Assembly: GCA_002786065.1 (NCBI GenBank)
Contig: NHNY01000004.1
Span: 1,290,236 to 1,354,235, forward strand
Reading direction: 5' to 3'
Source of the DNA: Microcyclospora pomicola
Taxonomy: Eukaryota; Ascomycota; Dothideomycetes; Capnodiales
DNA: 64,000 nucleotides
Below the pieces are notes generated by a model, which saw nothing but the letters and a program-made list of their open reading frames with translations, searched no databases and was not told where the DNA came from. The translations under genes were made by a program, and so were the position numbers. Shown one piece after another: positions 44,435 to 64,000 of the stretch (position 1 is its first letter; each line of letters starts with the position of its first letter).

Positions 44435-44700
44435 GAGTTTCACGACACAGCTTGCGCTATACGATAATGAAGTTCGTACGCGCAATGTTCACGGCAGGAA
44501 ATAGAGCTATGTAACGTCTTGTATACACACAATCTACCGAGTTCTACTGCCTAGCTATAACGTCGCTCTAAATACTGTTTTATGTCTATTGTTTAAGTCG
44601 ATACAGACCGACTCGGTATAGCCGATAAAATATACCGTAGAGCTCTCCGCGTCCTCTACGTAAAATCGAGGTAGCTTCGAGCGGCGGATCATCGACCTAA

Positions 44701-46745
44701 CTACTATTTAAGACGACAAGACAGTGTCTTGTCGAGATTCTCTATACAAATTCTGAAGTGCACAGACATTTTTAGAAGGGACGACCATCTCTTAGTAACT
44801 ATCAATTGTTTCGACAACGCGCTATTACAGCGCTTCTAAATAGTTTTAAGAGGCAATTGAAACAATTTAAAGCAAGTTTTGTATACATTTATAGTCGCTA
44901 TAACAACTCGTTATTATACAATATAGTTTCGAAATATCGCTTTATTAGTATTAAAGTTCGTTAAGGTAGTTCGGAGTATATATATATATTTTAGACTACT
45001 CGCGCTACGACATAGTATTCTACATTATATATACACTTCGAACTATTTAATAGGTAAGGTAGTAGGTCTAAATACAAGTTACTTTTACTAGTTAGTTAAA
45101 GTCTTTAAAATAGGTCTACTTTCTATACCTATACTATACTCTTTATAATCCTTATAGTCTAAGGTATACTAAAGAATAATAATAGAAGGGTCGAAGGTAT
45201 AATACTAGGTAATAGCTGTTAGGAAGTAGAGGGAGCAGGGGTAGGGCTATATCTAGTACGCTCTGTCGGGGTAGGGCTAAATATTCGATGTTGTTTATTA
45301 ATAGTAGCAGACCTTACGCTCTCGGAGTATATATCTCTTAGCTTATCTAGGATGTCTGTAGTCCTAGAGTCGTACGACTTATAGCATTACGACGTTTCTA
45401 ACAAAGTCTTGTAGCGAGGTAAGTCGATGCTAAGGTAAGCTAACACTTTGTTTAGGATACGATACGCGCACTCCGACCCTAGGCCTAAACGTCCCTCTTC
45501 TAAAGCTAGAAGGTTATAGGCTTTAGTATATATCTCGCCTGTGTTATAATCTGTTCCTAGATTATCCGCGTTAGACAGAGAGGTCTTGTCGCTGTTAATA
45601 ATAATCCGGGTAGAACGCGCCTTTTGTCTTAGAGGTAGCGATAACAACTTTATAGTTATAGTCGACTCGTATAGGGATAGGTCTTTATCTATAGTATTAA
45701 CCTACGAGTCGGAGAGGACACAGCGCGTATCTTTAGGCTTGCTCCGTTTTATCTTCTAGTTACGTACACGCTTAACCTAATATCGGCCTTCTAGAGACAA
45801 GACCTATAAGTCCTTAGAGTATACGCTTAATACTAGATCTCCGGGCTGCTAGTCTTCGACTAGCGGCGTAGGCCTGCTCGTATTCGGCTGCTATACGTAC
45901 TTACGCTTCTTCTAATAAGATAGGATCCTAAGGTTTACTCGTACTAATAGGTATGTCGTTAGGTCTATAGTACTAGCTTAGGTAGTCTATAGCTAAGAGC
46001 TAAGCTTCTACGTCTTAAGCACATTATATAGCTATAGGCGAGATGTCGTTAGAGCTTTGATCTATAAGGCCTAGCGCTACTATATATTAGTCCGCGACAC
46101 CTAGCGCTAGTTCTAGCTAGCTACAGCGTCCTCTAGTAATATCTTCGACTTCGTCGTGCGAACGATAGCTCTTAGAACCGAAGTACTATATTGCTAAGGT
46201 AAAGTAGACTGCTTGTTATGCAGACGAGTTCTTACTTCTTTAAACTACTCTTAGCTCTATACATCTATAATAGTATTTAGGAGCTACTTCTTCCTTACAT
46301 ATATACTATAACCTAATAGGACATTTATAGTAATTATGTCGAGGGTGTTCTTATCCTTTATATATATCTATACATCCTTAATACTAGTAGTACGCTATAG
46401 ACCTTTCGTTATACTATATTTGTATATTATCGTAGACTGTAACCCGCTATCCTTAGTCTACGTAGCTAGCTGCTTTAATAGCTCGATAATATGCAGTCGT
46501 TATACCTTACTGTTATCTAATAGATCTAGTTCGCGTAGTAGAGCGGTATCTACGTCCGTTTTAGGCCCTTCTCGTAGGATATATATAGTATCTTTAGTAG
46601 AGATCGTTAATAGTAGCTTTACTACTACAGATAAGGTTAATATAATGTTAAGAGACTATAGCTATCTATATAGGGAGTAAGGGACAGAAAGCAAAGGTTA
46701 GTATATATTAATAAAGTGTTAGGGAGTGTATAGTAGAGAACGCAT
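44701..46745. repeat. 2,045-bp direct repeat, proximal copy (heavily RIP-mutated)
   Basis: Starts at CTACTATTTAAGACG and ends at GAGAACGCAT. It aligns with 49259-51303 at a constant offset of 4558 and equal length, with no net gap. In 180 bp aligned from 44763/49321 I counted 12 differences. All are C-to-T or G-to-A in this copy, nine in CpA/TpG and three in CpG context. Confidence 0.9.
45096..46643 (-). pseudogene. RIP-destroyed copy of the unknown gene at 49654-51201
   Basis: Positions are inferred by the constant 4558-base offset from the distal repeat copy. The same frame can be followed without gaps, but many TAG and TAA stops interrupt it; the longest open part is about 86 codons (45387-45647). 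The family is unknown. Confidence 0.8.
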
Positions 46746-47280: not shown

Positions 47281-49269
47281 TACCTTGCTTAACTGCTATA
47301 CTCCTAATAGCTACTACTAAGCGTAGATACCTAACCCTTACTAAGGATAACAGCCTTCTAACTAAGCTAAGAGAACGGACTAAGGTACTTGCTTGTATCT
47401 ACTAGACCTAACGTAGAAAAAGCTCGTAGACTCGCGTCCGAGCAACTATATAGACGTTCGATCCTATATTTAGTAGAAAAGTATTCTCTGCGTAGAGTTA
47501 CCGACATAAATATAATACTAGACGACTACATCCCTTAATCTAGCGAGGATAGTATTAGAGGTAATCTTTAGGAACTCGTAGATACTGTTAGTAGTAATTA
47601 AGAGGCTTTTCCTACCCTCTAGGCTCGGTGTGTTAGAGTAGAGGATACAGGTGTAAACAATATACTGTCGCTATACTACGTAGTAAGTAAGGTAGTTACT
47701 TAGCGCTTCTATACAGCAAATTAACGACGAGCGTAGAATATTATAGCTGATAGCGACGATAAGATCGCCTGCTCTCCTTAATGTAGTACTAGCCCTACTA
47801 TAGCAGCATTATATACCCCTAGTAGTCTATACGAGACTAACAGTAATATCGATAATAGGTTCGAGAACGTTATCGATCGATACTACTATACGTAGCAACA
47901 ATAGAACTAGCTACCTTACAGCTTATTATATAGTGCCCTTAGCACTAACGGCCTGTTACTACTGTCCGAGGCATAAGAGGAGGATGCCCTATTTTCGAAT
48001 TAGGAGTTTAGTATATAGCTAGCTACTAGGAGGGACTACTCCTGCGTTAATCGACGCTAACAGAAAGAGCCTAAGGATACTTCTAAGCTACGTTTCGACG
48101 TAATAAACGACCGCGCTTTTAAGGCCGCGTTTATAGCGCGCGAGCCTGCTAATATACTACTACAGTACCTGCTTAAGTTTTAGGGTTGTAGTAGAGCAGA
48201 GCATCGTTCGACTATAAAACAGCATGTTAATAAGTTCCGAACTAATAGCAACACCTACTACCGCTTAAACGATGTCTACTCTAACAGGCGTATAACCTAC
48301 CCTGTTTTATAGAATTAATCGCTGCTCCGCCTAATCGATATAGCTTCGAAGATTATAACGCTATCTACTCTTACTTATACTATAGAAGGGCTTACTCTTA
48401 ATTCTAGCGGTTAGGATAGCTCTCTCCCTCGATATGTCTATGTTTATAAATCTAAGGTTCGAGATAATTCGGCTTATAGCGCTATTACCTTCGACTGTAA
48501 TTCACACTTTAGCTAGGCTACCTTACTCCGCGTATTCTAGCAAGGCCTAAGTTACTTCCCTATCCCTCCTACTATATAGTAGATAAACGCCGAGTTATAT
48601 CTGCCGAAGGAAGCTTAAGCGAGTCTAGGGGTGTTTAATCTAGACACCTATTACTTCCTAAAGCTTAACATAGCGACTTATATTTACCTCGGAGACCTAT
48701 ATAGCGAGGACGTTAAGGTATACATCTTCTTCCCTAATATCTATAACCCGAGTACGCTATTAATATACGATTAGTATCGGATCTAGTATAATTACGTTGT
48801 ATAGCCCGCTCTCTAACGAAGCTATCTATAAGACATACACTCTAGCTTTCCGTCCTATTATAGTAGCGCGACGATAGACTCTACGACCGCTTAAACTAAG
48901 AGGCGGTTAAGAGGGACGTGTAGTATAGGTACTATAGCCTACATTAAATATACTTTAGATACAGAGTTATATTATTTATTATAGGATTACATTATCGAAT
49001 CGCTCTACTCGACAGCTAGCGAGGACCTAGTCTAGTTTTAAGACCCTGTTATCTTTTTTAGCGCTAAGAATTATAAAATAAAGTACTACGATATAGAACT
49101 AGCTAAATATCTAGCGGAGTTTAACGACTTTATCGTAGCTAACTACGACCTTTTATATGTAGAGAACATAGTCGTTAATGTCGGTAAAGAGATTACTCCT
49201 TTGTTAGGAACCCTATCTACCGCTTTTATTAGGGAATGTTATATATATTGTGCCCTACCTACTATTTAA
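47281..49269 (+). pseudogene. RIP relic of a long gene of unknown family
   Basis: One plus-strand frame can be followed for about 660 codons (codons starting at positions congruent to 47281). It shows normal protein character between many TAG and TAA codons and no frameshift: for example VEKARRLASEQLYRRSILYL near 47410, DDYIP...SSEDSIRGNL near 47521, and YLAEFNDFIVANYDLLYVEN near 49120. The stops fit CAG/CAA/TGG codons mutated by RIP. The frame ends at TAA 49267-49269, just inside the distal repeat copy. The true start may lie further left. I see no recognisable transposase, polymerase or helicase motif, so I give no function. Confidence 0.7.
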
Positions 49270-49637
49270 GACGACAAGACAGTGTCTTGTCGAGATTCTC
49301 TATACAAATTCTGAAGTGTACAGACATTTTTAGAAGGGACGACCATCTCTTAGTGACCATCAATTGTTTCGACAACGCGCTATCACAGCGCTTCTAAATA
49401 GTTTTGAGAGGCAATTGAAACAATTTAAAGCAAGTTTTGTATACATTTGTAGTCGCTATAACGACTCGTCGTTGCACAATGTAGTTTCGAAATGTCGCTT
49501 TATTAGTATTGAAGTTCGTCAAGGTGGTTCGGAGCATATGTGTATATTTCAGACTACTCGCGCTGCGACACAGTATTCTACATTACATATACACTTCGAA
49601 CCATTCAATAGGTAAGGTAGTAGGTCTGAATACAAGT

Positions 49638-49664
49638 TACTTTTGCCAGTCGGTCAAAGTCTTT
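49638..49664. repeat. Subtelomeric palindrome, degenerate copy at the 3' end of the unknown gene
   Basis: TTTTGCCAGT-CGGTCAAAGT resembles the subtelomeric palindrome. The TGA that would end the minus-strand frame lies inside it. A RIP-mutated counterpart lies near 45080-45106. Confidence 0.6.
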
Positions 49665-51201
49665 GAAATAGGTCTGCTTTCTACACCTACGCTACACTCT
49701 TCACAATCCTTGTAGTCTAGGGTACACTAAAGAATGATGATGGAAGGGTCGAAGGTGCAATGCTAGGTGATGGCTGTCGGGAAGTAGAGGGAGCAGGGGC
49801 AGGGCTGTGTCTGGTGCGCTCTGTCGGGGTAGGGCCAAATATTCGATGTCGTTCATCAATAGCAGCAGACCTTACGCTCTCGGAGTATACATCTCTCAGC
49901 TTGTCTAGGATGTCTGTAGTCCTGGAGTCGCACGACTCACAGCATTGCGACGTTTCTAACAAAGTCTCGTAGCGAGGCAAGTCGATGCTAAGGCAAGCCA
50001 ACACTTCGTTTAGGATGCGATGCGCGCACTCCGACCCTGGGCCCAAACGTCCCTCTTCCAAGGCTAGAAGGTCATGGGCTTCAGCATACATCTCGCCTGT
50101 GTCATGATCTGTTCCTAGATCATCCGCGTCAGACAGAGAGGTCTCGTCGCTGTCGATAATGATCCGGGCAGAACGCGCCTTTTGTCTCGGGGGTGGCGAT
50201 AACAACTTCATGGTTGCAGTCGACTCGTACAGGGACAGGTCTTCATCTGTAGTATTGACCTGCGAGTCGGAGAGGACACGGCGCGTATCTTCAGGCTTGC
50301 TCCGTTTCATCTTCTGGTTGCGTACACGCTTGACCTGATGTCGGCCTCCTGGAGACGAGACCCATAAGTCCTTAGAGCATGCGCTCAATGCTAGATCTCC
50401 GGGCTGCCGGTCTTCGACCGGCGGCGCAGGCCTGCTCGTATTCGGCCGCTGCACGTACTTACGCTTCTTCTGATGAGATGGGATCCTAAGGTTCACTCGT
50501 ACCAATAGGTATGTCGTTGGGTCCATAGTGCTAGCTTGGGTGGTCTGTAGCTGAGAGCCAAGCTTCTGCGTCTTAAGCACATCATATGGCTGTAGGCGAG
50601 ATGTCGTCGGAGCTTTGATCTGCAAGGCCCGGCGCTGCTGCATATCAGTCCGCGACATCCAGCGCTGGTTCTAGCTAGCCACAGCGTCCTCTAGTGATGT
50701 CTTCGACTTCGTCGTGCGAACGATAGCCCTTAGAACCGAAGTACTATATTGCTAAGGTGAAGTGGACTGCTCGTTATGCAGACGAGTTCTCACTTCTTTG
50801 AACCACTCTCGGCCCTATGCATCTGCAATAGTATTCAGGAGCCGCTCCTTCCTTGCGTATATGCCACAACCTAACAGGACATTTACAGTGATCATGTCGA
50901 GGGTGTTCTCATCCTTCACGTACGTCCGTACATCCTTGATGCCGGTAGTACGCCACAGACCTTTCGTCATACCATATTTGTATATCATCGTAGACCGCAA
51001 CCCGCTGTCCTCGGTCTGCGCAGCCAGCTGCTTCAATAGCTCGATGATGTGCAGTCGTTGTGCCTCACTGTTACCTAACAGATCTAGTTCGCGTAGCAGA
51101 GCGGCATCCACGTCCGTTCCAGGCCCTTCTCGCAGGACATACATAGCATCTTCAGTAGAGATCGTCGATAGCAGCTTCACTGCTACAGATAAGGTTGACA
51201 T
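49654..51201 (-). CDS. Unknown subtelomeric protein, 516-codon frame interrupted by six TAG codons
   Basis: From the ATG at 51201 one frame runs without gap to TGA at 49656-49654. It is broken only by TAG at 50817-50815, 50754-50752, 50673-50671, 49719-49717, 49689-49687 and 49683-49681. Flanking residues make Trp plausible at several (NTIADA-x-GREWF, VAS-x-NQRWM, KSVA-x-V-x-KADL). Nearby CAG codons are intact (e.g. MQQRRALQ). The N-terminal ~130 residues look helical (LHIIELLKQLAAQ). The rest is basic then Ser/Pro-rich with acidic patches (SDADDLGTDHDTGE). I see no known domain. The gene sits wholly in the distal repeat copy, divergent from the RecQ-fusion gene. It may be a pseudogene by light RIP, or expressed with UAG recoding or editing. 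Confidence 0.6.
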
Positions 51202-51316
51202 GATGTCGAGAGACTGTAGCTATCTGTATAGGGAGTAAGGGACAGGAAGCAAAGGTCAGCGTGTGTCGATGAAGTGTTAGGGAGTGTATGGTGGAGAACG
51301 CATACCGCTAAGGCTT

Positions 51317-54300
51317 ATGTCATCCGAAGATCGCACCCCGGCTTACATAATCAAACATCGCGATGGATTCAGCAACGTAAGCAAAGACTTTGACCGACCG
51401 GCCAAAGTTTTAGAATCGCCAGACATTATATCGCTTTTTAGCAAATGTCACCAACTCCATCAGTACAGCATAGTCGACTTTCTCCTGAAGATGGGAGAGA
51501 CATCACGATCGATTTACCTACCGAGCTGCAGCAGCGTGTCCTTTACATCGCTGATGCTCGCATTGTAGTGTGCCTCCTATGCAAGATATGCTACGTCCCG
51601 TCGACGAAAGGGGTACAACGACATCTTCGCCGCCAACATATCGATTGGCCTCTTAAAGATCGTCAGCTTATCGAGACGTATATCGCCAGTTTAGATCTTG
51701 CAGATCCAAAGGCCATCCCAACCCCAGTCGGCATTTCTCGCCCTATCCCAGGTCTCGGGATACACGACGGCTGGGTTTGTCAGGAGTGCCAATATGCTAC
51801 AAAGGAGCAAAGTAGCATACAAGAACACTGTCGGGGGAAGCACGGTTGGGTAAGGGCTGCTGCACGACTTTGGAAGCCGGGCAAGATACAGACATTGTTT
51901 GGGGGTCCCCGTCGGCAGTACTTCAGCGTCCTCGATGAAAGGCCAAGTGAAGAAGGGGATAAGGGTGATTGGGAAGAGGCCGTAGTAAATATATTGGAAA
52001 GGGGGAAACTAAGAGACCAAGAGGAACTGGAGGAGCAGTATAACCCAAGCGGAGAATTGGCGCCCGTGGACAACACGCCATAGATGCGAAAGACGAGATG
52101 GGCTGATAAGTTTACTGGGTATGATCTACGCCAGGTCGTTCAGTTGAGTGTAAAGCCGACGAACGACGACGCGCAGCTAAGCAGCATTTGGGACTCCGTC
52201 TGCCGAATCCTCGCACAATGCGAGGCTAGCATAAAGGCGTGGCACCGAGATGTCGAGGACGGAGATGTTGTTCTAGGGTGGTTGAACAGTCCGAAAGCCA
52301 CGGAAACCAATACCAAGCCATTCAGTGTGTATTACGAGAAAGCAACGCATTAGAAGTACGCAAGCTATTGGGCACGTTGCATCTGTTATAACCTTCGCTT
52401 GCTACATAGCGGAACGAATCATGGACACCAATTCGATCCAACAGAGGAGCGAGCGATGCGTGAAGCATGGGACGCGGTGAACTTCGGGGAAGGCGACGAG
52501 GCATTAGATCGTTCGATATTCGATCTCAGTGTTCGGCTATGGCAACATGAAGCTCTAGGCACTTCGAAGTCGGCGTTAATACATTTTTGCGCCGTGCTAG
52601 GTATCCACGAGCAGACGTACTGTTTCCGCCTCGCGCCTACATATGGTCAAATGCTGGCGGGATTACTATATTGCGCTCGATTAATCCTCTTTGAACATGC
52701 ATTACCGCGCGACTCTCGTACACAGCTGACAGACCTATTTACTAAGTTTATCGCTGTTTATCATCTGTGGCTTGTGGATGGACGGCCTACGCCGTTCCAC
52801 TACATTGTGAACTTGCTTGCATATGCTCTCAGCGCAGGCAAAGAAGTCGGTGCTCTACCACGGGTAATTTGGTCAGATGCCCGAGACACCTTGATTTATC
52901 AGGGGCAACGTCTCCCTCTCAATGACCTACGGCAATTTGTGAACAACATATGTGCAGCTGCGGAACACGTTCTGTACCAGAAATTAGGGGTAGCAGACGT
53001 CGCTGGGTCCTTCAAGGCAATCATAGACGATATGAATGACAGGTCATTAGGATATTCCTTCATAGCCGACCCTAGAAACCAACTCATGTCCGGGCGTGAG
53101 GCCATTCTCCGACGACTTGCAGTCTCCTCCACCTATCGATCATTGTTCGACAAGACGCTAAAGGTAGAGCCACATGCCTGGCGGGCCTATCATGGTCATC
53201 TCGACCGATTCATGGGATTGTTATTTATCCTCGTCCACATGTGTAGCGGCGCACCAGCGCGAGGGGTGGAGATACTCCCAAGTCGATGGATGAACGCTTA
53301 TAAGGGACCACGAAACGTGTATATTGTTGATGGAGAGGTCATGATCGTCACTGCGTATCACAAGTCGCAGGCTATTACGGGGGCACATCGTGTCATTGCC
53401 CGGTTCTTACCACATCGAGTGGGAAAATTGCTTATTGCTTATCTTGTTGAGATTCGCCCATTCCACATGCTCCTCGACAGAGACAGTATTCCCAAAAAAG
53501 CCAGGAGCTTCCTATGGACTAACAAACAGGGTCTATGGTCCACCTCACACGCCACGAAGACCCTCGCGACGGAGACCGCAAGTAAGATAGGCACGCGAAT
53601 CACCTTCCATGATTACAGACACATCGCGAAGGCCATCGATCGAGAACAAGTACGTAGCATGATCGACGAAGATGAAGAAGGCCCTGATAACATTCACGAC
53701 CTAGCCTTTGCGCATACAAGTGCTACCGCCGATAGGATATATGCGATCGACGCTACCATGCTACGCAGTCTGACTTCTCGAACACTGAATGCGTTCCGAA
53801 GCGTGTCCCACAAGTGGCATTCGTTTTGGAGATTCGACGGGCCACCAGTGGAGCGAGGGCTTACGAGAGCGCGAGATTCGGGTAGCTGGCCCGAACTTCC
53901 ACCGAGAAAACTTGTACGAAGGGAAACGAATGCAAAAACTTTGGCCGGTCGGTCAAAGTTTTCAGATCCAGCGATTGAGGAAGCATTGGCGCACCTACAC
54001 GGACCCAAGAGCGAATTCAAAGACGTCTACCAGAAGGCCGGACTCAAAGCAGTACTGGAAGACAAAAGTCCTCTCGTGGTCATTCTTCCTCCAGGGGGTG
54101 GGAAGAGTCTCCTCTTTCAGCTCCCCGCGTCTCTATCGACCACGACTGCCACGATTGTCGTCGCACCGTTCCGGGCATTAATTAATGACCTCGTCCAGCG
54201 CAGTCGCGCACTAGGCATCAAGAGTCAGATGTGGGACGGCCAGCACTCTACCAATGCCCAGTTAGTCTTCGTCAGCGCAGAGACTGCCGCTGTGAACGAT

Positions 54301-55950
54301 GATTTTATGACATATCTTTCCAAACTGCAAGTGGATGGTCGGCTTGATCGTATCGTCGTCGACGAGTGTCACGTCCCACTCACCGCACAGTCCTATCGTC
54401 ATCAACTGGCCCATCTTGATCGGCTTCGCACCATCCCGTGTCAATTGGTGCTATTGACCGGAACCCTGCCGCCTCGAATGTGTCCTGACCTAGAGGCTCT
54501 GTTCCTTCTCCGAGACATCGAACGTAGGCCGCTCTATGTTCGCGCGCAGACGAACAGGAGCAACATTATGTACGAAGTAGAGGTCGGCCTAGTAGCTACA
54601 CGGGAGGATACCTTAAGGGATCGAATCCGTGAACAGCAACGTAGAACCCCTAATCAACGCTGCCTGATTTTTTGCCGTACCCGCGCCTTAAGCGAGGCGA
54701 TCGCTGCCGCACTCGGTTGCCAGGCCTATCACCGCGCGCAATCCAATCACGACGAGTCCATCGCGGCGTGGAGGGCTGGCGAGGATACGACTCTCGTAGC
54801 CACGACCGCTCTAGGGACTGGCGTCGATCTACTAGATGTGAACTTGGTCATACACATCGGCCTTCCCTATAGCATTGTCGACTTCGTTCAAGAAGTTGGG
54901 CGTGCAGGTCGGAGTGGACAACAGTCGTGTAGCATCGTGATGTTGTCTGAAACCGAGCTGTCATGGATCATGAGTCCGGATGCTCATAAGCAAACCTGGA
55001 ACCAAGAAGGTCTGCGGCTCTTTCTAGCCGCCGACAGCTGTCGACGCGCAATATTGACCTTGGTCATGGATGGCATCAGCAAATCGTGCGATCCAGCCAT
55101 CGCAGAGATTTGCGACAACTGTCACAAACAGCACTCTACGTCGCCGGTCCTGGCTGATGATGCCGAACCTCTGACCGAAACGTCGTCCAAACAAATAGAT
55201 GATATGCCGGTACAACAGTCGAGTATACCTCTGCCCAGTCGCGCAGAGCAACAAGCCCGGGATCACATTCACGGTACGCGCCTCTTCTCAGAGCGTATAC
55301 GCACGCGGGGGGATGAGCAAAGCAGCTTGCTAATCGCGGTGCGGGAGATTGCGACTGGGTGTGCGTATTGCTAGCTACAACAGCGTGATCCCACCAAACA
55401 CCCTACCCTGTCCTGTCCGCTGTTAGAAGAGGCTCTCGGTACTCCGTATCGGGCTGTACGAAAGACCCTTCATATGAAACCTAAAACTTATTGCTGCTAC
55501 CGATGCGGCTTACCTGCGGACTAGTGCCCCTACTTCTCACAGCGCCAGAAGTGTCAGGAGGCCGATATTGTTCCAGCATTGGCCCTCGCAGGATGGGCAG
55601 ACGACCTTACGGGGGCAGCGATACGATCTAGGTCAGGTTGTACGACGCTCTCCGACTTCCTGCAGTGGATGGGCGAGCTAGCCTATGTAGCCGGTATTCG
55701 AAGTGCGAACATGGTGAAAGCGGCATGTACCGTTGCCCGACTGAACGCAGTGACGAGTACCACGTAGGTCTTCGATCATCAGTCGAGAAAGGACGGCCGC
55801 GCTCGAAAAGCTGAAACTTTGGTCGACTGGCGAAAGTTTTCAAGTTTGCGGAATTTATTCTTGAAACAGGTACGATCGCAAACTTTAGCCGACTGGCAAA
55901 ATTGCTACAGCGATTTAACGTGTCGTCGCAGATATCTCCCGCGCATGTGA
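51317..55950 (+). CDS. Subtelomeric C2H2 / tyrosine-recombinase-like / RecQ helicase fusion, five in-frame TAG codons
   Basis: Exon 1 (51317-51376) joins exon 2 (51442-55950) across a 65-bp intron that carries the subtelomeric palindrome; the total is 1523 codons. Zinc-finger elements: a first Cys/His group near residues 64-85 and CQECQYATKEQSSIQEHCRGKH near 120 (C2H2). A region with tyrosine-recombinase marks follows: ARGVE near 624, HDYRH near 742, and AHTSATADRIYAI with His and Tyr nine residues apart near 778-787. RecQ motifs: GGGKS near 904, DECH near 994, TGTLPP, and QEVGRAGRSG near 1172. A Cys-rich tail (CCYRCGLPAD) follows. TAG codons at 52081, 52351, 55372, 55522 and 55765 are the only stops before TGA at 55948. 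Fungal telomere-linked RecQ helicases are known; this is probably one. Whether it is functional depends on the TAGs. Confidence 0.8.
51386..51410. repeat. Subtelomeric palindrome copy in intron 1 of the RecQ fusion gene
   Basis: GACTTTGACCG-ACCGGCCAAAG, starting 9 nt after the GTAAGC donor of the 51377-51441 intron. Confidence 0.85.
53937..53960. repeat. Subtelomeric palindrome copy within RecQ-fusion coding sequence
   Basis: AACTTTGGCCGG-TCGGTCAAAGTT, in frame, encoding KTLAGRSKF just upstream of the helicase domain. Excising it as an intron would shift the frame. Confidence 0.85.
55815..55838. repeat. Subtelomeric palindrome copy
   Basis: AACTTTGGTCGA-CTGGCGAAAGTT, in the 3' part of the RecQ-fusion frame; the surrounding bases GCTCGAAAAGCTG recur near 57245. 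Confidence 0.85.
55881..55903. repeat. Subtelomeric palindrome copy
   Basis: AACTTTAGCCGA-CTGGCAAAATT, 66 bp after the previous copy. Confidence 0.75.
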
Positions 55951-55980
55951 ATGTTGCTAGGGCCTTAGTTGCCTTGTCAG

Positions 55981-56042
55981 TTCACATGCATTTGTTCACA
56001 TACATTTGTTCACATGCCTTTGTTCACATGCCTTTGTTCACT
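55981..56042 (+). repeat. 14-bp tandem repeat, about four units
   Basis: Units of TTTGTTCACATGCC with variants (GCA and ACA for GCC), just upstream of the promoter of the small gene at 56232. Confidence 0.85.
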
Positions 56043-56231
56043 TCCCCAGCCACCTTTTAATTTTATCGCCGAAAAGGGTAATGGTCTGTGCGTGGTCAGA
56101 GAGGATATACCCTTTCGTTCTCGCCCTTTTCAACTTCTCCTTTTCATCCACTTCCTCTCCTTTCAGCATTCGATTCGACGCCAGTCCCCACAGTTCAGTT
56201 CCAAGACGAACTCCTCAAAGACAACCACATT

Positions 56232-56747
56232 ATGTCGACAGAACAGAATCGCACTAGGTAGGGCGATATCCCCCGATTATGCACCTAGTTGCTAGGTTCC
56301 GAAGGGATTTACTAATGAGTTCGTAGTGACCCCCTATCCACCCACTTCACAGATGTCAACTTTACCCGGCAGAACATCATCCCGCTGTTCAGAGGCGGGC
56401 TTGGTGCACGCAGCAACAGAAATAGGACGAGCTTCGAGCATAAGTGCGAGGTATTCCTCACGTGCGACGCGGATAGGACGTTCATCTGCACGTTCTTCCC
56501 AGACCCCGAAGAGTCCCAAGGCACGCAGCTCGTAGGCCCGAAGAAAATACAGACCGTCGCCGGCTATGCAGCCCCGTTCGAGACGGAGAAGCACCTGTAC
56601 AGCCTGTACCCCGTGTTCGACGACCCCGGGCTTTTACCTGTCACGTCTGATGGCAGTTTCAATGTGGCTGCTGTCCTTCAGATCGGCCTCATCATCTATG
56701 GGAAAATGGGGAAAACCGCGGAACAATTCAACAGGCCACAGAATTAG
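56232..56747 (+). CDS. Small unknown subtelomeric gene with one intron
   Basis: An ATG at 56232 follows a strongly CT-rich leader ending ACAACCACATT, a good fungal start context. Exon 1 (56232-56257) joins exon 2 (from 56327) across a 69-bp GT-AG intron with TACTAAT, completing AG|T (Ser). The resulting 148 residues read as a globular protein (FTDVNFTRQNIIPLFRGG, CEVFLTCDADRTFICTFFPD, FNVAAVLQIGLIIYGKMG). The frame meets TAG at 56745; if that codon were read through it would end at TGA 56829-56831, adding 28 residues including the recoded one. This echoes the TAG pattern of its neighbours. I recognise no family. Unlike neighbouring introns, this one has no palindrome. Confidence 0.6.
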
Positions 56748-57096
56748 GGTATCGGACAAGGTTCTCTAGGTCACAGTCGAGGGGAACGGCAATTTTCAGC
56801 GACAGGTCACAAAAGCAGGAGGGTGATGTGACCCTACGTCTTACATAGACACAAGCGCGGCGAGGCCGATCAGATTTTTGTAATACCCCTTACACAACGG
56901 GGTAACTAGCTCTATCAGACATCGAGACAACCCGGATCGGGTTGTACGTCATAAGGGCAGGCAGCCTAGATAGCTAGGCTCCGTAGCACAAATACCGTAT
57001 ATACGGCAACTAATAGTGTTTTAATGAACGTACCCGCGAATGTGATATAAGTCTTGTGTGTTACCTCCAAAAGTACGACCACGCTCGAGTCGCTAC

Positions 57097-57120
57097 AACT
57101 TTGGACGACCGGCGAAAGTT
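57097..57120. repeat. Subtelomeric palindrome copy
   Basis: AACTTTGGACGA-CCGGCGAAAGTT. Confidence 0.85.
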
Positions 57121-57261
57121 CCGGATGATCCGAAGGTGGTCGTCTTTGTCGCATAAACTTCGCAATCATCGAGCCCGTAGCTGCGGACAGCATACAAGTC
57201 TCAAACGATGTACAGTAGAACAAGAACAACGTAGAAAGAAGGACCGCGCTCGGAAAGCTAG

Positions 57262-57285
57262 AACTTTGGACGACTGGCGAAAGTT
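57262..57285. repeat. Subtelomeric palindrome copy
   Basis: AACTTTGGACGA-CTGGCGAAAGTT, with flanks like the copy at 55815. Confidence 0.85.
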
Positions 57286-57460
57286 TTCAGATTTGCGCAG
57301 AAGACTAACTATCACATTTATCCTACAATACTTGAGCACAGAGAGACAACGGTCATTTGGGCATGCTTGCAGAGTGGTGTTCTCCGGCTTTTAGGTGGCT
57401 CCCTCGGAATATATTCCAGCTCGCTGAGTACAAACAGGCATTTCTAAAACTCGGATTCCA

Positions 57461-57483
57461 ATCTTTAGCCGACCGGCGAAGTT
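57461..57483. repeat. Subtelomeric palindrome copy
   Basis: ATCTTTAGCCGA-CCGGCGAAGTT, one base shorter in the right arm. Confidence 0.75.
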
Positions 57484-57822
57484 GCGACGAGTCACAAGCA
57501 AGGGTCCAATATTAAGGTTTAGGCAGCCATCGGAGAGTTTCCACGAGATTCTACGTATCGAGCTTACTTTCACTTCACTTCGTGGACGGTTTTTGTATGG
57601 GCGCCTATAGTAAATGGGGGTGAGAAGTGAAATGGACGTGAAGATCAGCACGTGGATTGCGGCGAGCCTTTCCGCATTCGGCTAGCAAGCCCTAATAAGG
57701 TTGAGGCGCTTTGTGCATAAGGTTTGCCCCGAAGTGAAGTTCTCGACTTCCATCAAACATGTATGTTCCCACGTCTGCTACGTAAATTGGGTGCGCAGTC
57801 CGGGAAACATTCTGCAACATGG

Positions 57823-57847
57823 AATCTTCGCCAGTCAGTCAAACATT
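57823..57847. repeat. Degenerate subtelomeric palindrome copy
   Basis: AATCTTCGCCAG-TCAGTCAAACATT, decayed symmetry. Confidence 0.5.
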
Positions 57848-57923
57848 CTTACATTCACTTGACCTCAACCAATCAATGGTGGGTTTCGCTCGGCACGCCA
57901 CAGGACGTGCGTACGGAGCATGC

Positions 57924-57930
57924 TATAAAT
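57924..57930 (+). promoter_or_regulatory. TATA box of the SNF2-type gene
   Basis: TATAAAT lies about 220 bp upstream of the ATG at 58151 and is followed by long CT-rich tracts, a strong-promoter architecture in filamentous fungi. Confidence 0.5.
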
Positions 57931-58013
57931 CCATCCATCTCCTACCATCTGTCACCTCACAACCACTACCTTTTTCGTCATCACCACCTTCTTCGTCACG
58001 ACCACGTCTTCTC

Positions 58014-58037
58014 AGCTTTGCCAGTCGGCCAAACTTT
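58014..58037. repeat. Degenerate subtelomeric palindrome copy in the SNF2 gene leader
   Basis: AGCTTTGCCAGT-CGGCCAAACTTT, within the presumed 5' UTR or promoter. Confidence 0.6.
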
Positions 58038-58150
58038 CTCTTTTTTCAATTCCTAAATTCCAGCACTTGTCCTTTCCCAGCACACCCTTCGTCTCGTCCC
58101 TGTCGACTTTCCCATAGTCCCCAGGGGTACAGATCGAAAACCACTCCACA

Positions 58151-61100
58151 ATGGCAGATTCTTCTGCATCTATCTCGGAGGAGACTCGCAAGCGGAAACG
58201 CAGTGAGGCTCCGGAGACACCGAGCGATCCCGCTCACAACCCCACCACCACTGAGGAATCGAACCCTACTGCCGAACCTGAGAAAGCGGGTTCAGTCGCC
58301 GGTTCCGAACAGGCTGCCAAGGTCGCCACACCAAAGAAGACCGCCAAGGCATCTAAGCCGGTCAAAACCCCTAAGGTTCCCAAAGGAAAGGGTGCTCTTA
58401 CACAGCTCCCCGCTAGCATCGAGAACTTGAACTTGACCGACAAGGAGAGATTTGAGAAAGCCCTCCCCAGTCTCGAAGCCCATCGAGAAGCGACGATCAA
58501 GGACCTCAAGTTGAAAGGCAAATTCAAGCTCGCCGTGAGTGCCACATTGGGACCCAAGATCGTCAACATTTCCATCAGCGATTTGAAGCTGGCACAGGCT
58601 GCTGGCTACCTGAACTTGTATAGCACATACGAACTGTGGCAGTTCGCCTAGGAGAATGTCGCTGTCAGAGACATTCTGGCCAACTACGAAAAATTGCGCG
58701 AAGTGAGTAAATCTGACCAGCCGAAAGCTAAAACTTTGGCCGGCCGGCCAAAGTTTTTCGTTTTCAAACTCGAAGACTAACCACAATGATAGAACTACTT
58801 TGGCACTGCCAGGAAAAGCCATACCTTCGTTTTCAAGGAGCTTTGTGCCCATCTGTCGTCAGGAGTCATTTTTGCAGATCTGGTGCTGGACGACACTATA
58901 GAAGTCAACACTTCCGAGGGACCTTTTAAGTTGAAGAGCATGAAGATTTCCATCATGTACCTCCATTTCATGCGGACAGCGAGAGCGCTGTTGGACCTGC
59001 GAGAAAGCGACGAGGTGGCACGCAGAGTGTTTTCCGGTGCTCCTAGTGCCAACAACTTCATGTATCTTTCCACTTTCGACTCCGAGGATTTGTACAGAGT
59101 GCTAGTCCTCATCACATACTACCATACGAAGGATCGGAAACAAGCGGCCTCGGACAGCAATGCAAAGCACGGACAGAACGCCTTACCTGTGTTACCGATT
59201 TTCAGTGACAGCGATTCCGTCTACATCAACACCGATGAGCAGACCAGATCAGTTGAGCTTGCGATGTGGCAACTGGAAAGTGGAATCACCGACGAATCGA
59301 CTTGGGCCCAGTACTAGGCTGCTGATAAGGACAAGACCTAGGACGTCAACAGCGAGGATGAAGCCGAGGCCGATAAGTCGCTTCGTCACGCCAAGGTGAA
59401 TGTGAGCAGCTCCGACGTTGCCAGCTTAGATGATACGGCGCGTTTGGCGCTCGTCCGTACCTTGGCCAGCGGGGTCACCTACAAGTTTCGGGATCGCGAT
59501 CGGATCAACACCATGTTTCTCCCTGGCAATCAAGACCAGTTCCAAACGCAATTCGTCGCCGAATCCGCCGAGGAAGCCGGTCTCGATGAAACTGGCATTG
59601 TCAAAACTGACTTGGACCGGAAACAGTTCAAGACTCTCATGGCAGCTACGAATGAACACAGCGCCACCCTCCCCTCGTGGACAGAGGCTGTGAAAGTGTT
59701 GGACCTCAAAGTCGTCGAGCTCGGAGTCAATGATGAAGGCAAACCAAACATTGACGAGACCACCGGTGTGGACTTCCAGGTTTTCTTCCGTGGGTTGAAA
59801 TTGATCCCGCATCAGCCCCAAGCCGCCGCCTTTGCTACTCGCATGCTCGACACCCCGCTCCAAGCGTGCATGATTGCAGATGCTGTCGGCCTAGGAAAGA
59901 CCGTGAACTGCTGTGTCGCCATTGTGGATCAGGCCGCAAAGACTGAGAAGGCTAGGCTCGCTTAGAAAGGTAAGTGGAAATATCTCAGAATCTTTCGCCG
60001 GTCGGCCAAAGATTTGACGTTTCGTGAACTGACAATATTTGCAGCCCAGCATCGGAAGATCATCCTTCCTCACCTACCGTTAGACAGCGAAGGTAACGTC
60101 ATAGAACCTTCCCCCGCAGAGTTGATGGAAATCATCGAGAAGAACGGGCTTGGCGAGTTCATCGACTTACTCGGACCGCAACCTGTGCATCGTCCCGTTC
60201 TCGTGGCAGTCCCACTCTCGGCGATCAATGCTTGGGTCTCCGATGTACAGAACAGGTTCAAGGACAAGAGCTCTGGCCGTTACATCAATCTCTACCAGTT
60301 CACACCCGACACCAGCCGGGTTACCATGTTACAGCGCGATATCTCCATCGCCTACAGTGCAGTTGGCCTTAAACATTTTTGCGACTCCCTCGACCGCGAA
60401 GACGAGCAGACCTCGAACACCATCATTCTAGCCACGTATCGGACCCTTTCGCAGAAACTGCTCGACCAGAACGTTGTAGTGCGTCAGACAGCCAGAAACC
60501 GTACGAGCGGCAGGATAGTCGAAATTGACTCCGACAACGAGGATGAGGGCGTGCAAGGCGAGGATCCGAACAAGATCGCCTTGGAAGATTTGGAGCTTCA
60601 CCCGGAGGTTCGCAGGACAGCCAGGCTTGACATCCGTCCCGACACCTTTAGCATCTGCATTATGGACGAGGCACATCGCGTGAAGAGTCGGAAAAGTCTC
60701 CAGGCTATCACATTGTACCTCCTGGATGCCAAATACATCATGATGACGGCGACACCTACTGCGAACAATATCGGATGCTTGGAAGGGATCCTGGACTTTT
60801 TCTGGAAAGGCATCTCGAAATTCTTCTCCAAGGCGTGGGTGGACCTCAACCCTTGGCCTGATCTTGCAGGATACGGGAACCTCGCAAAGGAACTGGTGAC
60901 CGGGTATAACGGATCTCTTCTCAAGGTCGAGGACATGGACGTCTTCAAGCGCTTCACTTCATGCTTCAACCCCACTCAGTTCCACTTTTGGAGTCGCAAG
61001 GATGGCGGCACACTTTCGATCGCGACCGGGGCCCAGTTGCTCCTAATCATATACCGCCTCATCGCATGTCGTCGCGTGATGGGTCAAAAACTGGACGTTA

Positions 61101-63512
61101 ATGGGCGGATCATAGATCTCGGTGGTACTATACCTCACTACAACATCGTCACGATCGAGGCGAAATTCGGCCCTTTTACCCAGCGTATGTACACAGGAGT
61201 TCACCAGGCCTGTATCCCGGATGTCAGAGAGGACGACAAGGATGACAACGTCGCTGAAGACCACGACGACAATCCTCGAAACTCGCGTAATCGACGCCTA
61301 CAGCATGCTGCACTACATCCCCGACTGGATCTTCTGTCGCTGCGCACGTCGAAGTGCAAGACCTCGAACAATTGGTAAGTGAGAAGGAGCGAAAACTTTG
61401 GCCGACTGGCGAAAGATTCTGCGATTCTCTCACATTTTTCGCCCTTTATCGTCCTGTTAAACCGGAGTTTGACTAACACTTCTTAGGCACAATACCACCG
61501 GGAACAGCTTCAAAGACTTCTATCGCCTGACACATCAAGACTTGTTTGCACCCCTATATAACGATCGAGTTGCCATGGCGCAGTACATCTGCAATCCTTC
61601 TCCAAAACTCCGCATTTTGCTTCAGGAGATTCTGGACGTCGTCTTTACCGACAACAAGAGGCTCATCATCTTCGCCGACTGGCCTCTGAATCTCTGGCTC
61701 ATCGAACTGCTTCTAGACGTCCTACAGATCAAGTATGTCTCTATCCGCGCAGGTGTCAGCGGATCCACACGCACCGATGCAGAGCATAGTTTCACCAACG
61801 ACAAATCGGTTCAGATTCTGGTAGCCTCGCTGCGTTCTGCTGCGGAGTCATTGAACCTTCAGGGTGGAAGCTCGAACATCGTCATCATAGATGTTGTGAA
61901 CAACAACGTCATCGCCCAGGTCGTCGGACGCATCCACCGCTACGGTCAGGTACATGTGCAGAGGATCGTCATCCTCACCATGGAAGGGACAATCGATCAA
62001 GTCCTACAGGCGAACAACGCGAGGAAATATGCTGCGATCCTCGCCGGCACCGCTAAAATCCCCGTCCCTCTAGGCGTCTGCAAACGGGCCGAGGACATAT
62101 AGGCAAAGGAGATCGAAGAGACCTTGGCCCTCTCTCCAGATGTCAGCAAGGAGGAAGTCGTGCGAGATTTGGTCCAAGAGCCGATCATTCGGGCCATGGT
62201 GCGATCGCTTCTTAGGCAGCGTTCCGACCGTCAAATGTGGACTAGCTTCATCGACCCGGCAGAGAAAGACGAATTGCCGGAAGAAACCTTGTACATCTTG
62301 GTCTCTGGTGGAGAGGCCGCCCTGGAATTGATGACCCGCCTTCACAAGGACCCTACGCCCAAGGTCAAGAACAGCAAACTCCCGCTGACCGCCCCTGAAG
62401 ACGTCGATCCAGAGGCGGAGGCCGTCCCTAGTCCCTTGAAGAGAGTCGCGATCAGTGACCTCACCACCCCTAAGACTCAGCAGTTCAAGCCTGCCGAGTT
62501 CGTGGACGCCATTTGCCGGGCTGCGTTGCAAATGGCAGACACCAAGGCCCATCGAGCGTTCGAATACTCCCTAGAGGATGTCCTCCGCATGTTCGTCAAC
62601 AAGATCGTAGAGAATCCCTCGAAATATGCCTTGCAGGCGTTGGAGGACATCAAGAAGCCAGAGTACGAGCTAGGGCCGCTCCCCAAGTACACGAAGAAGG
62701 CTGCAGGCACGTTTCCCTTCACCTAATCTTTGGCCGGCCGGCGAAAGTTTTGGAATCGCTAACCTTTTCATCTCTCAGACTCCCCGTCGAAGTCGACCAA
62801 AGCGAAGACGAATGTGGCTATCAAAGCCGATCCTGCCGGCACCGAGCCTATGGATGTTGACGAGTCCTCTAAAGGTATGTTTCCACCCACCGAATCTTTT
62901 ACCGACCGGCCAAAGATTCGCATTCACTAATTATTCCACGATTTAGATCCGTCGTCGAAGACTACCGAAGTCAACCAGAGCGCAGCCCACCCCGACTCCA
63001 ATCCTAGCTCCGATCTTATGGACATCGACAACCCTTCGCCTCTTCCTCAGCGTGTCGGTCCAACTCCTCCGGCTACTCCAGGCAACACTTCCCAGACTGT
63101 CCCGTCGACGTCGTCTCCCGCGCCGTCCAACCTGGTAGAGTCTTCGGGCACAGTGGCGTCTACCCGTGGAGCCACCCTTCCCACAGAGGAGCCGACAGAG
63201 ACCAGAGGACAGGCTATAGCGCGCATCTCGAATCAGTTCAGCCGTCTCTACAAGCGGGTGGGTCCAATGATGGAGGCGCTTAAGAACCTGATCGACGAGG
63301 AGAAGTTCAATACACTCCCAAAGAGCAAGACGGGAAAGCCTACGAAGGCCGTCATCCTCACCGAGTTCGCTAGGGCCTGGTACGATAAGGAGCAAAAGGA
63401 ATGGAAGGAGGCACGCGATGTCCCCGAGCCACGTCAGTCCTCCAATAATGGACAGGGCAGTGAGAACCAGTCGGAGACTGCACCTGAGGACAGCGATATG
63501 ACTGGGGTTTGA
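58151..63512 (+). CDS. Subtelomeric SNF2-family ATPase/helicase, six exons, five in-frame TAG codons
   Basis: I assemble exons 58151-58702, 58793-59969, 60045-61374, 61487-62706, 62779-62874 and 62947-63512: 1647 codons, in frame throughout. An Ala/Lys/Pro-rich N terminus is followed by an unknown region. Then come SNF2 motifs: HQPQAAAFATRML and ADAVGLGKT (Walker A, about 546), DEAH (about 783), MTATPTANN (about 811) and, C-terminally, VVGRIHRYGQ (motif VI, about 1167). The tail is Ser/Pro-rich with MDVDES and MDIDNP. Intron 4 has a GC donor (62707). TAGs at 58649, 59315, 59339, 59963 and 62100 are the only stops before TGA at 63510. Every intron holds one palindrome. SNF2 proteins remodel DNA-protein complexes; a role in subtelomeric chromatin or element spread is speculation. 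Confidence 0.8.
58732..58755. repeat. Perfect 24-bp palindrome in intron 1 of the SNF2 gene
   Basis: Arms AACTTTGGCCGG and CCGGCCAAAGTT are exact reverse complements. Intron 58703-58792; the palindrome starts 29 nt from the donor. Confidence 0.9.
59989..60014. repeat. Palindrome in intron 2 of the SNF2 gene (AATCTTT arm variant)
   Basis: Outer arms AATCTTT and AAAGATT remain complementary although both differ from the main type. Intron 59970-60044; starts 19 nt from the donor. Confidence 0.85.
61394..61417. repeat. Palindrome in intron 3 of the SNF2 gene
   Basis: AACTTTGGCCGA-CTGGCGAAAGAT. Intron 61375-61486; starts 19 nt from the donor. Confidence 0.85.
62725..62750. repeat. Palindrome in intron 4 of the SNF2 gene
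   Basis: AATCTTTGGCCGG-CCGGCGAAAGTTT. Intron 62707-62778; starts 18 nt from the donor. Confidence 0.85.
62893..62918. repeat. Palindrome in intron 5 of the SNF2 gene (AATCTTT arm variant)
   Basis: AATCTTTTACCGA-CCGGCCAAAGATT, outer arms complementary. Intron 62875-62946; starts 18 nt from the donor. Confidence 0.85.
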
Positions 63513-63616
63513 GGGAAGACGATCCACGCGAGAAGGGACATGATCCCACTCCTTCACGGTCCTATGTATAATAGTTGATGGTACATTGTGTAAGATAGGT
63601 GTGATACCTAATACTC

Positions 63617-63880
63617 AAACTTTGGCCGACCGGTCAAAGTTTCTCCAAAACTGTTTTTAATGTAACAACTCGAATCTGCCTTTCGGGCGACTAGTTGAAG
63701 TTCTTTTCTTTGTATGTCGGACATGACAGTTAGGATTAGAACTTTGGCCGACCGGTCAAAGTTTCTCTGAAATTGTTTTAACTTAACGACTCGAATCTGA
63801 TATTTAGTTAACCAGCTAAAGGGGTTCTCTTTATGTTGAATTTGTAATTACAACTTTAGCCGACTGGTCAAAGTTGTTTG
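63617..63880 (+). repeat. Telomere-proximal tandem repeat with palindromes
   Basis: About 2.2 units of roughly 115-122 bp. Each full unit has a clear palindrome (63618-63641, 63740-63763, then 63852-63875) and a second, degenerate one (about 63678-63702 and 63802-63823). Shared words include CAACTCGAATCTG / CGACTCGAATCTG. It adjoins the telomere directly. Confidence 0.75.
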
Positions 63881-64000
63881 TTTAGGGTAGGGTTTGGGGT
63901 TAGGGTAGGGGGGTTAGGGTTAGGGTTAGGGTTAGGGTTAGGGTTAGGGTTAGGGTTAGGGTTAGGGTTAGGGTTAGGGTTAGGGTTAGGGTTAGGGTTA
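63881..64000 (+). repeat. Telomere, (TTAGGG)n
   Basis: Degenerate TTAGGG-like repeats from 63881 turn into perfect TTAGGG units from 63914 to the last base (about 14 units). The G-rich strand runs 5' to 3' toward the right end, so this is the true right chromosome end, cut only by the assembly. Confidence 0.98.

What the first reader, a model, noticed from the sequence alone, without database searches (positions are those of the whole stretch)
49638..63875. Palindrome family of about 24 bp confined to the terminal 14 kb, one copy in the RecQ intron and in every SNF2 intron
I find about 20 copies (arms AACTTTGGCC/GGCCAAAGTT and close variants) from 49.6 kb to the telomere and none in the chromosomal-arm part. 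Copies lie inside the only intron of the RecQ-fusion gene and in all five introns of the SNF2 gene, mostly 18-29 nt after the donor. None of the 16 introns I reconstructed between 1 and 44 kb has one. Introner-like elements that create introns are described in Dothideomycetes; these could be short subtelomeric introners, splicing hairpins, protein-binding sites, or recombination sites. The linkage of one palindrome to each intron is the striking part.
Basis: partly seen in the sequence, partly recalled or inferred. Interest (0 to 1): 0.88.

Follow-up and report, generated by a model that had tools for sequence, protein, structure and literature searches.

The report
Palindromic sites clustered beside a telomere
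A 24-26 base palindrome is repeated about 18 times in the last 14 kb of a fungal chromosome, almost only between genes and in the five predicted introns of one gene; it looks most like a binding site for a paired DNA-binding protein rather than a self-copying intron.

Summary
The palindrome family is real: 14 places match the 20-bp core with 3 or fewer mismatches, all between 49.6 and 63.9 kb, against 0.01 expected; degenerate copies bring it to 18. All five predicted SNF2 introns hold one copy. Two claims fail: the RecQ ORF needs no intron at its copy, and a sixth predicted intron (56258-56326) has none. The inner limit partly reflects decay: 49254-51303 has a RIP-degraded twin at 44696-46745. 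Conservation is concentrated in the 26-mer, half-site positions vary unequally (TT invariant in 36 of 36), arms show no significant compensatory change, copies lie in both orientations, and 17 of 18 lie outside my exon models. This fits a dimeric protein's binding site better than an RNA hairpin or introner, though an old, decayed introner is not excluded: offset from the donor and one base variant set intron copies apart. Introns 1-3 share nothing detectable beyond the palindrome; 4 and 5 are a tandem duplication. Intron linkage is above chance (P about 0.001-0.003) but rests on one gene. No other chromosome end could be searched.

The parts
45079..45104 (-). RIP-degraded twin of the palindrome copy at 49637, in the inner copy of a 2050-bp duplication
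49637..49662 (-). palindrome copy, 6 mismatches, 3' of the minus-strand gene
51385..51410 (+). palindrome copy between two divergent genes (upstream of the minus-strand gene and of the RecQ-type gene)
53936..53961 (-). palindrome copy inside the RecQ-type ORF, in frame, before the helicase domain; no CTRAY string in the candidate intron examined
55814..55839 (+). palindrome copy just after the TAG taken as the end of the RecQ-type ORF (inside a 65-bp, 86% repeat of 57233-57297)
55880..55905 (+). degenerate palindrome copy, 66 bp after the previous one
57096..57121 (+). palindrome copy, intergenic
57261..57286 (+). palindrome copy, intergenic
57460..57485 (+). degenerate palindrome copy, intergenic
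57822..57847 (-). very degenerate palindrome copy (9 mismatches), intergenic; at chance level on its own
58012..58037 (-). degenerate palindrome copy upstream of the SNF2 start codon
58731..58756 (.). perfect palindrome in predicted SNF2 intron 1
59989..60014 (-). palindrome in predicted SNF2 intron 2
61393..61418 (+). palindrome in predicted SNF2 intron 3
62725..62750 (.). palindrome in predicted SNF2 intron 4
62893..62918 (+). palindrome in predicted SNF2 intron 5 (intron 4 plus following exon duplicated in tandem)
63617..63642 (+). palindrome between SNF2 and the telomere
63739..63764 (+). palindrome between SNF2 and the telomere; 63618-63763 and 63740-63875 are 74% alike
63851..63876 (+). 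palindrome directly before the telomere repeats
58151..63512 (+). SNF2-type gene, 5 predicted introns: 58703-58792, 59970-60044, 61375-61486, 62707-62778 (GC-AG), 62875-62946; 5 in-frame TAGs
51445..55764 (+). OrsD + DEAD + Helicase_C (RecQ-type) ORF, one frame with 4 in-frame TAGs before a TAG at 55765
56258..56326 (+). predicted intron of the small gene starting at 56232; no palindrome (counter-example)

Best explanation
The 24-26 bp palindrome is most likely a binding site for a sequence-specific protein that binds as a dimer, used many times across a telomere-linked block that carries RecQ-type and SNF2-type helicase genes. Some copies were spread by local duplication within the block, and they have been kept out of exons, so inside a 5.4-kb gene they lie in introns. 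Shown here: the family, its confinement within this window, the concentration of conservation in the 26-mer, the unequal position-by-position variation, and the absence from all but one of my exon models. Inferred: that a protein binds it, that the protein acts on subtelomeric chromatin or on the block's own genes, and that introns serve only as permitted places. From recall, a CCG-N2-CGG core flanked by TTT/AAA would suit a fungal zinc-cluster factor; this was not tested.
For: In 18 aligned copies the core columns carry 0.4-1.7 bits, most above 0.8, while the 80 flanking columns carry 0-0.7, most under 0.3 (no null was run for the flanks). Half-site variation is unequal: mismatches per position 11,6,8,6,3,0,0,15,8,3,1,8,16 of 36; chi-square over positions 2-12 P 2e-6, or 2e-4 in 26 half-sites after dropping five near-duplicate copies. 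Arm pairing averages 9.0 of 13 against 9.3 with shuffled arms as written, and 9.0 against 8.8 when oriented (shuffle fraction 0.10), so the symmetry lies mainly in the consensus. By their centres 11 copies are plus, 5 minus and 2 symmetric. 17 of 18 lie wholly outside my coding models, where 20% of start positions do (binomial P 1.6e-11, copies treated as independent). Three copies lie within 300 bp of the first perfect triple telomere repeat.
Against: No binding protein and no binding data. No other chromosome end or species could be read. Subfamilies share changes by descent, which inflates the unequal-variation test and the binomial test. One copy sits inside the RecQ ORF, and if the TAG at 55765 were read through to the TGA at 55948 the copies at 55814 and 55880 would be coding too, leaving 15 of 18 outside. 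The near-constant 18-19 nt distance from the donor in four of five introns (three of four independent introns within 1 nt: P 0.013) and the T at half-site position 3, commoner in introns (6 of 10 against 2 of 26 half-sites, P 0.002), are not predicted by this model.
Confidence: 0.42

Rival explanations
1. A small non-functional or selfish palindromic repeat (a micro-MITE or scar) that spread by insertion and segmental duplication in subtelomeric DNA and survives only where it does not break exons.
For: Local duplications carry some copies: 55786-55850 and 57233-57297 are 86% alike, 63618-63763 and 63740-63875 are 74% alike, and intron 4 plus exon is duplicated as intron 5 plus exon. Avoidance of exons is expected.
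Against: Divergence is unequal along the half-site (TT invariant in 36 of 36), unlike neutral decay. In the printed flanks of the 18 copies I saw no target-site duplication by eye (no test was run).
Confidence: 0.3
2. Introner-like element: the palindrome is part of a mobile intron that created the SNF2 introns.
For: All five SNF2 introns hold one copy; random placement of 17 copies in non-coding DNA gives this at P 0.0013, or 0.0033 with introns 4 and 5 merged and 14 copies counted. Distances from the donor are 28, 19, 18, 18, 18, and intron copies favour a T at half-site position 3. Dothideomycete ILEs are described as symmetrical or structured (passages of PMC8469720), and ILEs are said to become indistinguishable from ordinary introns quickly (passage of PMC4457414), so lack of similarity does not exclude an old one.
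Against: Introns 1-3 show no similarity above shuffles outside the 26-mer. 13 of 18 copies are not in predicted introns. One predicted intron nearby has none. Introns 4 and 5 are explained by tandem duplication.
Confidence: 0.11
3. Recombination site of a tyrosine recombinase: the RecQ-type protein carries a stretch that to the eye resembles a tyrosine-recombinase catalytic set, and the palindromes could be its targets in exchange between chromosome ends.
For: Dyad symmetry and telomeric place; residues reading FHDYRH and AHTSATADRIYAI in the protein (my reading, from recall of such motifs).
Against: Pfam found no recombinase domain. The single-sequence fold is unusable (mean pLDDT 34.7). Copies in introns and next to each other are an odd layout for a recombinase target.
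Confidence: 0.09
4. RNA hairpin that aids or regulates splicing.
For: Introns 1 and 5 fold better than shuffles (z -4.3 and -3.2).
Against: Introns 2, 3 and 4 do not clearly (z -1.4, -1.3, -0.13). No significant compensatory change between arms. 13 of 18 copies are outside predicted introns. In another fungal family of symmetrical introns the authors judge the symmetry not necessary for removal (passage of PMC8469720).
Confidence: 0.05

Closest known systems
Subtelomeric protein-site elements such as budding-yeast STR/X elements with Tbf1 and Reb1 sites (recalled, not searched)
   Same: Short binding-site-like motifs repeated next to telomeres
   Different: Different sequence, a longer dyad, and copies inside predicted introns of a telomere-linked gene
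Telomere-linked RecQ helicase genes of fungi (passages of PMC4522978)
   Same: RecQ-type gene next to a telomere in a genome with RIP-type mutation
   Different: Here with an OrsD domain, a neighbouring SNF2-type gene and the palindrome; 'palindrom' and 'SNF2' have 0 occurrences in that paper's main text
Introner-like elements of Dothideomycetes (passages of PMC4457414) and symmetrical stwintrons of Hypoxylaceae (passages of PMC8469720)
   Same: Symmetry inside several introns
   Different: Those families are grouped by sequence similarity of the introns themselves; here only the 26-mer is shared, and it lies mostly outside introns

Membership tests
Introner-like element | Introns form a family by sequence identity | tested here: not met
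   No pair of the five introns beats shuffles at 0.05 outside the palindrome; lowest fraction 0.06 for 4 against 5, which are a tandem duplication. Decayed ILEs may lose identity (passage of PMC4457414)
Introner-like element | The repeated element is itself the spliced intron | tested here: not met
   5 of 18 copies are in predicted introns
Introner-like element | New intron positions compared with relatives | not testable with these tools
   No relative confirmed in viral contigs or genome contigs; no fungal genomes are held
Dimeric DNA-binding site | Dyad consensus with conservation concentrated in the site | tested here: met
   (no null run for the flanks)
Dimeric DNA-binding site | Position-specific constraint in half-sites | tested here: met
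   shared descent of subfamilies is a caveat
Dimeric DNA-binding site | Bound by a protein | not testable with these tools
   no binding data
Conserved RNA hairpin | Compensatory changes between arms | tested here: not met
   own-arm pairing 9.0 against 9.3 shuffled as written; 9.0 against 8.8 oriented, shuffle fraction 0.10; 18 copies give modest power
Tyrosine recombinase target | Recombinase encoded nearby | tested here: inconclusive
   no Pfam hit; fold model unusable

The most novel reading that the evidence does not exclude
Introns as carriers of chromosome sites: a telomere-linked gene block needs the dyad at intervals along its DNA, and the introns of its SNF2 gene are gained or kept because they hold the site clear of coding sequence. 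This would explain one copy per SNF2 intron, the similar spacing (1258, 1404 and 1332 bp between the copies of introns 1-4) and the near-constant offset from the donor.
Probability: 0.12. Interest if true: 0.75.

Novelty: new variant of a known kind. Interest (0 to 1): 0.45.

Why it matters
If the site recurs at other chromosome ends, it would mark a subtelomere-specific DNA-binding system in a filamentous fungus and give a simple test of whether introns can be kept for a DNA-level function. If it does not, it is a local repeat of little wider meaning.

Tried and rejected
The motif in viral contigs: two hits, L001 and L002, both GC-rich contigs with the site in the same sequence context, taken as one chance match. 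Relatives of the RecQ-type protein: none in viral contigs (no pattern match), none confirmed in genome contigs (3 pattern matches failed tblastn). Relatives of the SNF2 part in viral contigs: 4 pattern matches, none confirmed. Structure of the suspected recombinase region (52702-53838): mean pLDDT 34.7, not used. Palindromes in a purine/pyrimidine scan: 10 hits with 2 or fewer mismatches, all already listed, none in 44-49 kb; the twin at 45079 was found by aligning the duplicated segment. A strict intron-pattern scan gave 15 strings in 1-44 kb (both strands) and 5 in 49254-63880; of these 5, four hold a palindrome (SNF2 introns 1, 2 and 5, and 63712-63807 outside the gene) and one, 53650-53704 inside the RecQ ORF, does not; it missed SNF2 introns 3 and 4 and the small gene's intron, so it was not used for counts. 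Literature: no held paper contains any of five 14-base strings of the motif. Searches on subtelomeres with palindromes, introns, RecQ or SNF2 and on introners, recombinases and editing showed no title or abstract start that describes it; only listings were seen, some of them capped, apart from passages of PMC4522978, PMC8469720 and PMC4457414.
Full report
What is there. The window ends in TTAGGG telomere repeats; the first run of three perfect units is at 63914. Pfam finds OrsD, DEAD and Helicase_C in the ORF 51445-55764, and SNF2-related and Helicase_C domains in the gene at 58151-63512 (the SNF2 query ran on through predicted intron 2, and TAG was read as tryptophan). The palindrome consensus is AAACTTTGGCCGACCGGCCAAAGTTT. 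In 64 kb, 17 places match it with 8 or fewer mismatches (mean 0.25 in 20 Markov resamples) and 19 with 9 or fewer (mean 1.45); of these 19, all but 19956 lie in 49637-63876. With the 20-bp core and 3 or fewer mismatches there are 21 strand-wise hits at 14 places, against a mean of 0.01 in 100 dinucleotide shuffles. I used 18 copies: the 17 plus 57822.

The inner border. A 2050-bp segment at 49254-51303 has an ungapped copy at 44696-46745, 87.4% identical. Of 259 differences, 256 are C-to-T or G-to-A towards the inner copy; 71% of CpA sites (193 of 271) and 21% of CpG sites (53 of 252) changed. This is the signature of RIP. The palindrome at 49637 lies in this segment, and its twin at 45079 is degraded. 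The inner limit of the family is therefore partly a limit of decay. The rest of the AT-rich stretch shows no further copy in a purine/pyrimidine scan (10 hits with 2 or fewer mismatches, all already known).

Introns. The SNF2 model has five introns of 90, 75, 112, 72 and 72 nt, with donors GTGAGT, GTAAGT, GTAAGT, GCACGT and GTATGT, and each has at least one CTRAY branch string. The 112-nt intron shifts the frame and must be spliced if the full protein is made; the 75-nt one is open in frame and could be retained. All splice sites are predictions. Each intron holds one copy. The RecQ-type gene needs no intron: its frame runs through the copy at 53936, which codes for a stretch before the helicase domain, and an 84-nt candidate intron there has no CTRAY string. 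The small gene at 56232 has a predicted 69-nt intron with a CTAAT string and no palindrome. If 17 copies fell at random in non-coding DNA, all five SNF2 introns would be hit with P 0.0013; merging introns 4 and 5 (14 copies, four introns) gives 0.0033. Intron 4 with the exon after it aligns to intron 5 with the exon after it at score 86 (500 shuffles: mean 24.8, largest 49); without the palindromes 54 (largest 42); exons alone 40 (largest 34). So they are most simply one tandem duplication.

What kind of sequence it is. In the 18-copy alignment the core columns carry 0.4-1.7 bits and the flanking columns 0-0.7, most under 0.3; orientation was chosen to favour similarity and no null was run. 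Some copies sit in longer local duplications. In 36 half-sites, mismatches per position are 11,6,8,6,3,0,0,15,8,3,1,8,16; the spread over positions 2-12 is unequal (P 2e-6; in 26 half-sites, after dropping 57096, 57261, 62893, 63739 and 63851, P 2e-4). RIP does not explain this: half-site position 8, whose G lies opposite a CpA, is A in only 3 of 36. Own-arm pairing averages 9.0 of 13 against 9.3 with shuffled arms as written (shuffle fraction 0.90), and 9.0 against 8.8 when oriented by the centre (0.10). The dyad is thus mainly a property of the consensus, as in a site for a dimer, not of compensated hairpins; 18 copies give modest power. RNA folding is uneven: z-scores for introns 1-5 are -4.3, -1.4, -1.3, -0.13 and -3.2, and 0.67 for the small gene's intron. 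17 of 18 copies lie wholly outside my exon models, where 20% of start positions do (P 1.6e-11); if the RecQ frame went on past the TAG at 55765 to the TGA at 55948, it would be 15 of 18.

Results against my reading. Palindromes start 18-19 nt after the donor in four of five introns; three of four independent introns within 1 nt has P 0.013 under a uniform model. The T at half-site position 3 is commoner in introns (6 of 10) than elsewhere (2 of 26), P 0.002. Both could mean that intron copies share a history of their own, as an introner would. Against that, no pair among the five introns has a shuffle fraction under 0.05 outside the palindrome, the lowest being 0.06 for 4 against 5; but ILEs are said to become indistinguishable from ordinary introns quickly (passage of PMC4457414), so an old introner is not excluded.

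Comparison. Fungal telomere-linked RecQ genes in a genome with RIP-type mutation are known (passages of PMC4522978). Introner-like elements are grouped into families by sequence identity, with 98-99% identity in some species and much less in another (passages of PMC4457414), and symmetrical stwintrons carry 45-55-nt terminal inverted repeats (passages of PMC8469720). The palindrome here is unlike both as described there. I saw no description of it in the listings (titles and abstract starts), and no held paper contains the five 14-base strings searched; the held papers are a part of the literature.

Verdict. A real, local family of dyad sites in a telomere-linked helicase block, most likely protein-binding sites, with a statistically supported but single-gene link to introns. 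The genome-wide test that would raise or end the interest could not be run.

Noticed in passing
51445-55764, 58151-63512, minus strand 49720-51201: The three long terminal genes hold 12 in-frame TAG codons (4, 5 and 3) and no TAA or TGA before the stops I assumed (TAG 55765, TGA at 63510-63512, TAG 49719). Several read naturally as tryptophan by eye (AD*CPYF, P*MRKTRW). Light RIP or A-to-I editing of UAG to UGG (reported in some filamentous ascomycetes; abstract starts of PMC11156358 and PMC5496914 seen) could explain it. In the RIP twin 5 of 27 new stops are TAA, so 0 of 12 is only weakly unusual; no homologs were available to tell W from Q.
   Followed up: partly
44696-46745 and 49254-51303: Ungapped 2050-bp duplication, 87.4% identical, with RIP-type change almost wholly in the inner copy (256 of 259 differences), though from recall RIP normally hits both copies. 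The three in-frame TAGs of the minus gene are present in both.
   Followed up: yes
62707-62712: Predicted SNF2 intron 4 has a GC-AG donor (GCACGT) where its tandem duplicate, intron 5, has GTATGT.
   Followed up: partly
55786-55850, 57068-57132, 57233-57297: Related 65-bp segments around three palindromes; with the weak 1304-bp-spaced repeats 55524/56828 and 55616/56920 they may be a decayed copy of the RecQ gene's 3' end.
   Followed up: no
63683-63706 and 63802-63821: Two further very degenerate palindrome-like stretches between the telomere-proximal copies, perhaps a decayed array with a period near 60 bp (by eye).
   Followed up: no
52702-53838: The RecQ-type protein between OrsD and helicase reads by eye, from recall, like a tyrosine-recombinase catalytic set; no Pfam hit and no usable fold.
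   Followed up: partly
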